DNA from: Pirellulales bacterium
Lineage (GTDB): Bacteria > Planctomycetota > Planctomycetia > Pirellulales > JALHPA01
DNA length: 64,000 bases
Reading direction: 5' to 3'
NCBI GenBank assembly: GCA_033762255.1
Contig: JANRLT010000027.1
Location: 1-64,000, forward strand
This document shows, one piece after another, positions 10,420 through 62,524 of the stretch; the first letter of the stretch is position 1, and each line of letters starts with the position of its first letter. The notes beneath the pieces are model-generated. The model did not search any database. It saw only the letters and a program-made list of their open reading frames with translations, and was not told where the DNA came from. Both the position numbers and the translations under genes were made by a program.

Positions 10420-10518
10420 GGGGGTGGGATTGGGAGAAGTGGAGTTTGGAGTAATGGAGGAGTGGAGAAATACTCTTTCCATTCTTAATTTTTCATTCTT
10501 AATTCTTCATTGACTCGC
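10420..10518 (-). repeat. AT block plus 7-bp-period TCC tract before lptE
   Basis: Read leftward, this is an AT block (GAATTAAGAATGAAAAATT, 14-bp repeats) followed by a G-poor tract of units such as CACTCCT, CCATTAC, TCCAAAC and TCCACTT that runs up to the lptE ATG. It fills the whole spacer between the BamD-like gene and lptE. Confidence 0.6.
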
Positions 10519-12899: not shown

Positions 12900-12950
12900 G
12901 GCGGGAAATACAAATTAAGAATTAAAAATTTACAATTAAAAATTGAGCCG
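12900..12950 (-). repeat. AT-rich repeat block before recO
   Basis: The spacer between the corC-like gene and recO is filled with near-7-bp AT units (AATTAAGAATTAAAAATT, then CAATTAAAAATT). The CAC-type tract seen at the related sites is missing here. Confidence 0.45.
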
Positions 12951-51828: not shown

Positions 51829-51924
51829 GAGGGAGAGGGGGGTGGGCAGTGGAGGGTGGGAAGTGGTTAGTGAGGAGTGGATAAGCACAATTTTTAATTT
51901 TTAATTATTCATTCTTAATTGTTA
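51829..51924 (-). repeat. AT block plus CAC-type 7-bp repeat before rsgA
   Basis: Read leftward: AT units (AATTAAAAATTAAAAATTG) followed by six 7-bp units each ending CAC (TATCCAC, TCCTCAC, TAACCAC, TTCCCAC, CCTCCAC, TGCCCAC), then a C/T run ending at the rsgA ATG. This is the clearest example of the family. It fills the whole aroE-rsgA spacer. Confidence 0.75.
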
Positions 51925-52770
51925 TCACAGGCTAAGATACTCTTCCAGCGCCTCGCGCATCGTCGCGGCATTCGGCGTAACGCCCGTCCAGATTTGAAAG
52001 CCGATTACCGCCTGGTTGACCAGCATGCCCAGGCCATCCAGCGTGGTCGCTCCGGCGGCCTTGGCTTCTTGTAAAAATCGGGTCTCCGGGGGGCTAAAAA
52101 CCACATCCGCCACGACCAGATTCGGCCGCAAGGTCTCGCGCTTGACCGGCACGCGGGTCTCTTCGGCAAACAGGCCAATACTGGTCCCATTGATCAAAAT
52201 TTCGGTCTCGGGGGGAATTTCGTATTCTTTTTCCCAACCCACCGCTTCCGCCGCCACATGCACTTTTTCCCGCAAGACCGCCGCCAGTTCTTCGCCGCGC
52301 GACGGCGTGCGGTTCACAATGGTGATCTTACCCGCCTGGGCGAGTGCCAGCTCGACCGCGATCGCCCGAGCGGCGCCCCCCGCCCCCAGGATCGTGACCT
52401 GGGTCCCGGCGGGATCCCGCACCTCCCGCAGCGATTGCAAAAATCCCTTGCCGTCGGTGTTTTCGCCCAGTAGCCGCCCCTGGTGGTGGTGGATACAGTT
52501 GACCGCCTGCATCAGTTGGGCGGCCTGGCTTAGTTCATCCAAATGCTCAATCACGGCCACTTTGTGGGGCATGGTGATATTGCCCCCGCGAAAGTTCATC
52601 GCCCGCGCGCCGCGGATGGCATCGGCCAGTTTTTCGGCGGGGACCTCCAGCGTCAAATAGCGCCAATCAAGATTGGCCTCGGCCAAGGCCCGCTCCATCA
52701 TGAATTGGGTGGGGTTACCGGCGACGGGCTGGCCGAACACAAACAGAATTTCTTGCAAAGAGTTGGACAC
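51925..52770 (-). CDS. aroE: shikimate dehydrogenase family protein
   Basis: Reduces 3-dehydroshikimate to shikimate with NADPH. N-terminal catalytic domain: FGQPVAGNPTQFMMERA replaces the usual Ser-x-Ser pattern (family SLSPxMHN); the catalytic Lys is in GGNITMPHKVAVIEHLDE and the Asp in GENTDGKGFL. The NADP-binding domain has ILGAGGAARAIAVELAL and IVNRTPSR. C-terminal block DGLGMLVNQAVIGFQIWTG. The variant substrate loop may mean a divergent planctomycete type or altered specificity. The start is uncertain: a GTG at 52770 gives SNSLQEILFVFGQ, while the frame is open to 52833. It precedes rsgA on the same strand. Confidence 0.85.
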   Translation of the reverse strand: MSNSLQEILFVFGQPVAGNPTQFMMERALAEANLDWRYLTLEVPAEKLADAIRGARAMNFRGGNITMPHKVAVIEHLDELSQAAQLMQAVNCIHHHQGRLLGENTDGKGFLQSLREVRDPAGTQVTILGAGGAARAIAVELALAQAGKITIVNRTPSRGEELAAVLREKVHVAAEAVGWEKEYEIPPETEILINGTSIGLFAEETRVPVKRETLRPNLVVADVVFSPPETRFLQEAKAAGATTLDGLGMLVNQAVIGFQIWTGVTPNAATMREALEEYLSL

Positions 52771-60925: not shown

Positions 60926-62005
60926 TTAATTGACATAAACGTTTCGCTCGGGATCATAGTAATCCCGCTCTAACGACACCGGTTTGCCGCGGGCCTGTAT
61001 TTCTCCCGGTAAACGCTCGAGCACGGCCAACAGACTGGCGCCCCGGGCATAACCCCGCCGCCTTCCGCGCAAGGCCGACAACAGCACAGCGGATTCACCC
61101 GCAAAAATATGTTCCAATGCCTGATTGACCGGCCCAAACGGCACGGCAAAGTCGGTCCCCGCCGCGCCCGCCGACCGACCACGCCAACGATTGACCTGCC
61201 GAATGGTCCGAATGACGGGATACAGGCGCGTGTTAAAGTGGGTCAGCAGCCGCGTTTTGACCGGCAGGTCCGCCCATAGCTGTTCTAATCGGGGGGTGGT
61301 GTAGCGTCTAAAATGGCCAAAGCTTTCATCGTGACGACTCCACAGCGCCAAATCCGCGGGGACGGTGATCAGTACGAACCCCCCCGGCTGCAATTCCGCC
61401 AGAATGCGTGAAAGCAGCAAAAAGTCGTCCCGGACATGCTCTAGCACATCATTAAGCATGACCAGATCTGCCCTTCGCGCGGTCTCGCCTAGGTCATCGG
61501 GGGCAAACCCTCGCACAAATTCCACGCCCGGAAATCTGGCCTGGGCGAGTGCGATAGCCTCGGCGCTCGAATCGATCCCCACGCAATGATACCGGTTGGC
61601 CAGCGCGGCCAGATTGGCCCCCGTGCCGCAACCGACATCCACGATGAGTGGCTTTGAAAGTTTGCAGTTTGAAATTTGCAGGCCAGAAGATCTGAGATGG
61701 TTGCAGGTCGCGTCATCCACATGCCTGCCCCCTAGCCCCTGTCCTCTTACCCCTGCCTTTCCTCCCGTCTCCCGCCTCCCGTCTCCCGCCTCTCCTCTGT
61801 TCCCTGCCTTTCCTCCCGCCTCCCGCCTCCCATCTCCCGCCTCTCCCCTGTTCCCTGCCTTTCCTCCCGTCTCCCAGCTCCCGTCTCCCGCCTCTCCCTG
61901 TCCCAGCAGTTCATCAACCAACCGACCCACAATTCGCCGCCGGGCGGTAAACCACCAATGGGATTGTTCGATATTGGCATGCAACTGGAACTGGGCGGAA
62001 TTCAT
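60926..62005 (-). CDS. class I SAM-dependent methyltransferase carrying a repeat-array insertion
   Basis: A 359-residue protein. Residues 1-35 (HANIEQSHWWFTARRRIVG) are a normal start for this methyltransferase group. Residues 36-108 are an insertion: three 17-residue units (GEAGDGRREAGGKAGNR type) and then a unique stretch, encoded by period-7 repeats. The SAM domain resumes with PLIVDVGCGTGANLAALA, the acidic GIDSSAEAI, and LVMLNDVLEHVRDD, followed by LQPGGFVLITVPA and FGHFRRYT. The C-terminal part has a hydrophobic region with NRWRGRS and DYYDPERNVYVN. It probably methylates a sugar or lipid intermediate; the substrate is unknown. Whether the insertion tolerates folding cannot be told from sequence. 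Confidence 0.85.
   Translation of the reverse strand: MNSAQFQLHANIEQSHWWFTARRRIVGRLVDELLGQGEAGDGSWETGGKAGNRGEAGDGRREAGGKAGNRGEAGDGRRETGGKAGVRGQGLGGRHVDDATCNHLRSSGLQISNCKLSKPLIVDVGCGTGANLAALANRYHCVGIDSSAEAIALAQARFPGVEFVRGFAPDDLGETARRADLVMLNDVLEHVRDDFLLLSRILAELQPGGFVLITVPADLALWSRHDESFGHFRRYTTPRLEQLWADLPVKTRLLTHFNTRLYPVIRTIRQVNRWRGRSAGAAGTDFAVPFGPVNQALEHIFAGESAVLLSALRGRRRGYARGASLLAVLERLPGEIQARGKPVSLERDYYDPERNVYVN
61642..61910 (-). repeat. period-7 repeat array inside the methyltransferase gene
   Basis: Units such as CTCCCGT, CTCCCGC and CTCCCGC on the plus strand run through about 61745-61905, with a 51-bp higher-order repeat present three times (17 residues each). The adjoining stretch 61645-61675 is a second period-7 tract (CAAATTT, CAAACTG, CAAACTT on the minus strand). 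Both preserve the reading frame. Confidence 0.8.
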
Positions 62006-62123: not shown

Positions 62124-62524
62124 GTGAATCAAACGAAATCACTTATAATCATCATAAGTCTTACAATTGGTGTGCGTGGAAGCCCAGAAAAAATCCTTCC
62201 TCATAATGAGTGTTATTTACGCTGCATTGTCACCAACACCCGCTCGCGCAACTATTTCGGCAAGCTGATCAGACTGACGATCAAGGGCGAGACGCTGCGG
62301 GCGACGGCCCATCACCCTGTTTGGATTGTCCGGGGAGAGGAATTAAACCGTTGGCCAGCGCGGGAGCATTGTCCGGCATTGCCAGAGGGAGCCTCCGTTA
62401 CCAGCCGCAGGGTCGACGCGGCGCATTTGAATGCGTGAGATGTCCTGCTGACCCGTCGCGTTGTAGCTGCTTGCAGGCGATTGATTTGAACCGCACCGTC
62501 AGCGACGTAAGTCTAGTCGCAGTC
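62124..62524 (+). pseudogene. decayed Hint-domain (intein/hedgehog-type) gene fragment
   Basis: Residues from about 62170 read ILPHNECYLRCIVTNTRS, then LIRLTIKGETLRATAHHP and VWIVRGEEL, EHCPALPEGASVTSRRVDAAHL. The T-x-x-H block (LRATAHHPVW) is Hint block B, and the rest matches planctomycete pretoxin-Hint proteins as I recall them. An in-frame TGA (62436) follows NA, after which the same frame gives DVLLTRRVVA. A frameshift near 62470 then leads to LQAIDLNRTVSDV. Both toxin and N-terminal parts are missing. It is likely a relic of a polymorphic toxin or Rhs-like gene. Confidence 0.6.

What the first reader, a model, noticed from the sequence alone, without database searches (positions are those of the whole stretch)
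61642..61910. Period-7 repeat array has invaded a methyltransferase reading frame
Seen: about 73 residues (36-108) separate the N-terminal helix from the SAM-binding domain and are encoded by two period-7 tracts, one with a 51-bp unit repeated three times. The protein segment is Gly/Arg/Glu/Lys-rich. The frame is kept on both sides, and the catalytic domain is intact. Inference: a mobile or slippage-generated non-coding repeat became a tolerated linker, or the gene is on its way to decay.
Basis: partly seen in the sequence, partly recalled or inferred. Interest (0 to 1): 0.7.

Follow-up and report, generated by a model that had tools for sequence, protein, structure and literature searches.

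The report
Heptamer repeats inserted inside methyltransferase gene
A seven-base repeat that this planctomycete bacterium carries at about 40 places, nearly always between genes, has also ended up inside a methyltransferase gene without shifting its reading frame, where it now encodes a floppy linker; two other conserved genes of the same genome carry the same kind of insert.

Summary
The methyltransferase gene (60926-62005, minus strand, 359 aa) carries about 79 extra residues between its N-terminal helix and its SAM-binding domain. None of 21 homologues has them. The insert is coded by a (TCTCCCG)-type heptamer array (a 51-bp unit, three copies) plus a short TTTGAAA-type tract. The frame and 78 of 81 near-invariant residues are kept, so decay is unlikely. 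AlphaFold2 gives the linker pLDDT below 50 and the catalytic core above 90.

The array belongs to a dispersed family: 118 pattern hits in this genome against none for the reversed control, and few or none in most of 392 planctomycete genomes sampled. Of 38 arrays examined, 34 are intergenic. The other four lie in frame in three conserved genes: this one, an IscS-type cysteine desulfurase and a THUMP-like methyltransferase.

Intergenic arrays are polar: the 5' end of the G-rich strand lies near a gene edge (median 30 against 270 bp; 29 of 30). This is the rule published for GGGNATC heptamers in Xanthomonas and Nostoc. I read the finding as a tolerated linker made by a spreading, slippage-prone G-rich heptamer repeat: a new member of a known kind, with a cross-phylum polarity worth testing.

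The parts
60926..62005 (-). Class I SAM-dependent methyltransferase ORF, 359 aa, with the HWWF..RR N-terminal motif of its family
   Evidence: ORF; Pfam Methyltransf_23 at residues 120-244, E 3e-16; 17 homologues in Pirellulales at 47-59% identity over the catalytic part; fold matches to class I methyltransferases in the PDB
61907..62005 (-). Conserved N-terminal helical segment, residues 1-33
   Evidence: aligned in all homologues; helices 3-15 and 17-33 in the AlphaFold2 model
61655..61903 (-). Extra segment, residues 35-117 (83 aa, against mostly 4 aa in homologues)
   Evidence: residues 37-95 have pLDDT below 50
61751..61901 (+). (T/C)CTCCC(G/A) heptamer array, C-rich on the + strand, organised as a 51-bp unit x3; G-rich on the coding strand, with three G3N1-7 quadruplex motifs
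61723..61750 (+). Degenerate C-rich heptamer-like lead-in to the array (TGCCCCC TAGCCCC TGTCCTC TTACCCC)
   Evidence: read; direct-repeat family
61653..61681 (+). Short TTTGAAA/TTTGCAG heptamer tract of a second heptamer family (TTTGMAR pattern: 9 places in this genome, reversed control 0)
60929..61654 (-). Intact catalytic domain, residues 118-359

Best explanation
The insert is a member of a lineage-specific family of G/C-rich heptameric tandem repeats (unit GGGAGRY on the G strand) that spread through the intergenic DNA of this planctomycete. Shown: the insert is absent from homologues; the same repeat family lies at about 40 loci; the frame and catalytic residues are kept; two other conserved genes carry the same kind of insert. 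Inferred: a short heptamer run was seeded in a permissive loop between the N-terminal helix and the SAM fold, then grew by local slippage or duplication (the 51-bp block copied to three). The perfect unit and its common variants contain no stop codon in any of the six frames, so any array whose length fits the frame is readable. Selection removed frame-breaking outcomes and kept a disordered Gly/Arg/Glu-rich linker that the enzyme tolerates. No positive function of the linker is needed.
For: Homologue spacing HWW to DVGCG is 24-53 aa against 105 aa here. Insert stretch 83 aa against 2-31 aa in 21 homologues; 78 of 81 near-invariant columns kept. Dispersed family: 45 BLAST matches and 118 pattern hits with reversed control 0. 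Four of 56 other Pirellulales genomes searched have 1-2 hits; 19 of 392 genomes drawn from the phylum, this one included, have any, and this genome has by far the most. Thirty-four of 38 arrays lie outside conserved coding sequence although the coding density is 0.81 (binomial P 2e-20). In-frame inserts also in an IscS-type cysteine desulfurase (77 aa against 2-5; 179 of 200 columns kept) and a THUMP-like methyltransferase (51 aa against 0-12; 77 of 104); E. coli IscS (1p3w) resumes after a 3-residue gap where this protein has 83 residues. The perfect units TCTCCCG, CCTCCCG, TCTCCCA and CCTCCCA are stop-free in six frames, as are 27 of 38 real array cores. Linker pLDDT below 50, core above 90. 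Locus-specific 14-bp and 51-bp higher-order units point to local duplication.
Against: No genome of the same genus was available, so the empty site is seen only in proteins about 50-60% identical and no DNA-level junction or target duplication can be read. The loop varies in length in other lineages too (up to 31 aa), so part of the non-repeat stretch may be older linker. Seeding by copying is inferred from the distribution, not observed. Expression and activity are untested.
Confidence: 0.75

Rival explanations
1. The gene is decaying; the insert disabled it and it is a pseudogene in the making.
For: The insert is long (about a quarter of the protein), and long G-rich coding RNA could hinder translation (G-quadruplex motifs).
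Against: No stop or frameshift; 78 of 81 near-invariant residues kept; catalytic core modelled with pLDDT above 90; two further conserved genes with such inserts are also intact.
Confidence: 0.07
2. The array was not copied from elsewhere but grew in place by polymerase slippage from a chance heptamer.
For: Heptamers are the main short-period tandem repeats in an unbiased sample of this genome, with several unrelated units. Locus-specific 14-bp and 51-bp units show local expansion. A slippage cause tied to the polymerase footprint has been proposed for heptamers (PMC4692102 discussion).
Against: The same unit family occurs at about 40 loci in this genome and almost none in other Pirellulales; independent slippage would not choose the same unit each time.
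Confidence: 0.2
3. The linker or its G-rich mRNA has been given a job: a length-variable switch (phase variation by frame), a quadruplex that tunes translation, or a charged tether.
For: The coding strand is G-rich with three quadruplex motifs. Array length change by one heptamer would shift the frame. The array position next to genes is non-random elsewhere in the genome.
Against: The insert is confined to this lineage. In the desulfurase the C-rich strand is coding instead, so no common RNA structure is kept across the three genes. The genes are housekeeping-like enzymes rather than surface structures.
Confidence: 0.1
4. Assembly or sequencing artefact: the repeat was wrongly joined or its copy number is wrong.
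For: The genome is a 72-contig draft and two contigs end in such arrays (C10, C49), so long arrays do break the assembly.
Against: The three 51-bp copies differ from each other and the frame is kept exactly on both sides, which a random join would achieve one time in three; three genes show it.
Confidence: 0.04

Closest known systems
G-rich heptameric repeats GGGAATC / GGGGA(C/T)T of Xanthomonas and Nostoc (Rehm et al. 2015, PMC4692102)
   Same: Seven-base tandem unit with a run of three or more G, dispersed over the genome, mostly intergenic, variable copy number, able to form the four G-tract quadruplex motif. Same polarity: near the 5' neighbouring ORF on the G strand (28 against 160 nt on average there; median 30 against 270 bp here), whatever the ORF direction. 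A minority lie inside ORFs there too.
   Different: The unit here is GGGAGRY, not GGGNATC; different phylum. In-frame inserts were checked against homologues here; I did not see such a check in the sections of that paper that I read.
TAACTGA heptamer repeats of Beggiatoaceae and cyanobacteria (MacGregor 2015, PMC4679880)
   Same: Dispersed intergenic heptamer arrays with a minority inside ORFs, mostly at the edges of proteins.
   Different: TAACTGA carries stop codons in one orientation, so it ends ORFs; the unit here is stop-free in all six frames and sits in the middle of proteins.
Rickettsia palindromic elements (RPEs) inserted in frame in genes (reviewed in PMC10969869)
   Same: A non-coding repeat of a genome becomes part of conserved proteins in frame, repeatedly, as an added segment.
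   Different: RPEs are discrete elements of about 150 bp that code a conserved peptide; the thing here is an open-ended tandem array with no common ends and no inverted repeat.

Membership tests
GGGNATC-type G-rich heptamer repeats (Rehm 2015) | Unit sequence GGGNATC / GGGGA(C/T)T | tested here: not met
   The unit is TCTCCCG/CCTCCCA and variants, that is GGGAGRY on the G strand
GGGNATC-type G-rich heptamer repeats (Rehm 2015) | Heptameric G-tract tandem arrays dispersed over the genome, mainly intergenic | tested here: met
   38 arrays examined, 34 outside conserved coding sequence
GGGNATC-type G-rich heptamer repeats (Rehm 2015) | Array closer to the ORF at the 5' end of the G strand, whatever the ORF direction | tested here: met
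   29 of 30, median 30 against 270 bp, sign test P 6e-8; in two other planctomycete families 12 of 15 by my count
GGGNATC-type G-rich heptamer repeats (Rehm 2015) | Forms G-quadruplexes in K+ (CD spectroscopy) | not testable with these tools
   Only the sequence motif was tested: 22 of 38 arrays hold four G-tracts with loops of 1-7
Rickettsia-type palindromic element / MITE | Discrete element with inverted repeats and fixed ends | tested here: not met
   0 inverted repeats in 61600-61950; arrays of 3 to 29 CTCCC units with no common flanks
TAACTGA repeats | TAACTGA unit | tested here: not met
   Unit differs
Class I SAM-dependent methyltransferase (Methyltransf_23/25) | SAM-binding motif and Rossmann-like fold | tested here: met
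   Pfam matches above cut-off, DVGCGTG motif, PDB fold matches

The most novel reading that the evidence does not exclude
G-rich heptamer arrays in unrelated phyla (Planctomycetota, Xanthomonas, Nostoc) are products of one strand-polar generating process that anchors the 5' end of the G strand at gene edges, and that now and then lands inside genes and supplies ready-made, stop-free linkers to conserved enzymes. The polarity holds whatever the gene direction, so it would reflect how the arrays are made or pruned (for example directional growth or deletion up to the gene edge) rather than transcription.
Probability: 0.2. Interest if true: 0.7.

Novelty: new member of a known kind. Interest (0 to 1): 0.42.

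Why it matters
Heptamer repeats are over-represented in many bacteria and nobody knows how they arise or spread. This genome adds a new unit family in another phylum that obeys the same polarity rule as the Xanthomonas and Nostoc repeats, and it shows a route by which non-coding tandem DNA becomes protein: stop-free arrays that settle in permissive loops of conserved enzymes. If the polarity is general, it is a testable clue to the mechanism.

Tried and rejected
Pattern YTTTGMARTTTGMARTTTG gave nothing because of a wrong leading base; corrected. Gradient of pyrimidine-rich or degenerate units on one side of the arrays: no difference between the two flanks. Discrete mobile element with terminal repeats: no inverted repeats, no common ends. 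A hairpin in the linker of the G049 homologue (L011) looked like an independent repeat invasion of the same loop, but the sequence occurs once in that genome, so I make no claim. Other ORFs overlapping arrays (20 tested): most have no Pfam family, and those of L097, L108 and L110 overlap arrays only at their 5' ends. The DNA glycosylase of G286 (L197) reads through an array without net gain in length against a solved relative, so not every array inside an ORF is an added segment. Search for close relatives in the GTDB contigs found only proteins of about 55% identity.

Full report
What is there. The window is contig C27 of a 5.47-Mb, 72-contig draft genome. Its relatives with known titles are Pirellulales and other Planctomycetes. 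ORF 60926-62005 (-) codes a class I SAM-dependent methyltransferase of 359 aa. The N-terminal 33 residues and everything from residue 118 on align with homologues. In between lie 83 residues where 21 homologues have 2-31, mostly 4. The extra DNA holds, read on the + strand: a TTTGAAA/TTTGCAG heptamer tract (61653-61681), a non-repeat stretch of about 40 bp, a degenerate C-rich lead-in, and a (T/C)CTCCC(G/A) heptamer array organised as a 51-bp unit in three non-identical copies (61751-61901). The lag-7 identity of the array is beyond all of 2000 dinucleotide shuffles.

A genome-wide family. The array sequence matches 45 places in the genome. A strict three-unit pattern has 118 hits while the reversed pattern has none. 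Four of 56 other Pirellulales genomes searched have 1-2 hits. Of 392 genomes drawn from the phylum, 19 (this one included) have any hit, and only two others have more than ten (G171 and G286, one genus of a distant family). I fetched the surroundings of about 40 arrays. Of 38 arrays with three or more units, 34 lie outside conserved coding sequence although about 81% of sampled DNA is coding by my own hexamer gene caller (P 2e-20).

Inside genes. The other four arrays lie in three genes, all in frame, all with homology resuming on both sides. They are the window methyltransferase; an IscS-type cysteine desulfurase (L076:2758-4179, two arrays with the palindrome CACTACTGGCTTGACCAGCAGTG between them; 77 aa against 2-5 in 11 homologues; E. 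coli IscS has a 3-residue gap there); and a THUMP-like methyltransferase (L079:1896-3374, 51 aa against 0-12). Near-invariant residues kept: 78/81, 179/200 and 77/104. The G-rich strand is coding in the two methyltransferases, the C-rich strand in the desulfurase. The perfect units TCTCCCG, CCTCCCG, TCTCCCA and CCTCCCA have no stop codon in any frame of either strand; AATTAAG- and TAACTGA-type units do. That explains why this family can survive inside genes. In other planctomycetes with the same heptamers, arrays also lie inside ORFs, among them a leucyl-tRNA synthetase (about 6 extra residues in a loop against the Thermus enzyme 1h3n), a protein kinase, a sigma factor and a DNA glycosylase. 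These were not compared with close homologues.

Structure. AlphaFold2 with five sequences: residues 37-95 pLDDT below 50, most of the catalytic core above 90, mean 74. The linker is predicted to be disordered.

Polarity. For 31 intergenic arrays with genes called on both sides, the gene at the 5' end of the G strand is the nearer one in 29 of 30 untied cases (median 30 against 270 bp; two-sided sign test P 6e-8). In 21 of 31 this neighbour's stop codon faces the array, in 10 its start. Some arrays sit in the same intergenic region, so not all are independent. Fifteen intergenic arrays of two other planctomycete families give 12 of 15 by my count. Rehm et al. report the same rule for Xanthomonas and Nostoc heptamers: average 28 nt to the 5' ORF against 160 nt, irrespective of ORF orientation (PMC4692102). 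I know of no explanation.

Interpretation. The simplest account is a spreading G/C-rich heptamer family, expanded locally by slippage or duplication, that became a tolerated linker in a permissive loop. Decay is unlikely. How the units spread is inferred only. Membership: it is not the GGGNATC family (unit differs) but behaves like it in every tested respect; it is not a palindromic element. The finding is a new member of a known kind; the in-frame inserts in three conserved enzymes and the shared polarity make it more than routine.

Limits. No same-genus genome was available; gene calls near arrays are my own; quadruplex formation, expression and activity are untested.

Noticed in passing
window 28357, 24049(-), 22907(-), 24281, 28454, 23958(-), 24016(-), 24354, 11950, 21492, 50495, 38708(-): At least eight families of short hairpin repeats, absent from 625 kb of relatives. 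Several read GTAG at one end on the opposite strand, like GTAG-tagged REPs (PMC3733652); they often flank the heptamer arrays in a fixed order and orientation.
   Followed up: partly
window 51888-51925, 12903-12947, 10476-10511: AT-rich tracts with period 7 or 14 (AATTAAG/AAAAATT type). Period 7 is the leading short tandem period in an unbiased 464-kb sample of this genome and, with other units, in a complete relative.
   Followed up: partly
L076:2758-4179: Cysteine desulfurase of the IscS type with a 77-aa in-frame insert made of two heptamer arrays and a palindrome between them, catalytic cysteine segment kept.
   Followed up: yes
L206:3061-5718 (G300), L197:4314-4982 (G286), L202:3768-6482 (G171), L196:3396-5411 (G286): Leucyl-tRNA synthetase, DNA glycosylase, protein kinase and sigma factor of other planctomycetes whose ORFs read through the same heptamers.
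   Followed up: partly
window 62124-62438: Short ORF with an ATAHHPVWIV stretch that resembles, from memory, an intein-like (HINT) fragment; likely a remnant.
   Followed up: no
G000 contigs C10:1-190 and C49:1-210 (L110, L111): Two contigs end in long arrays (24 and 29 units), so the longest arrays probably break the assembly and are under-counted.
   Followed up: no
genomes G012, G054, G196, G200: The reversed control pattern itself has several hits in these genomes, which suggests another C-rich heptamer family (CCCTC type) there.
   Followed up: no
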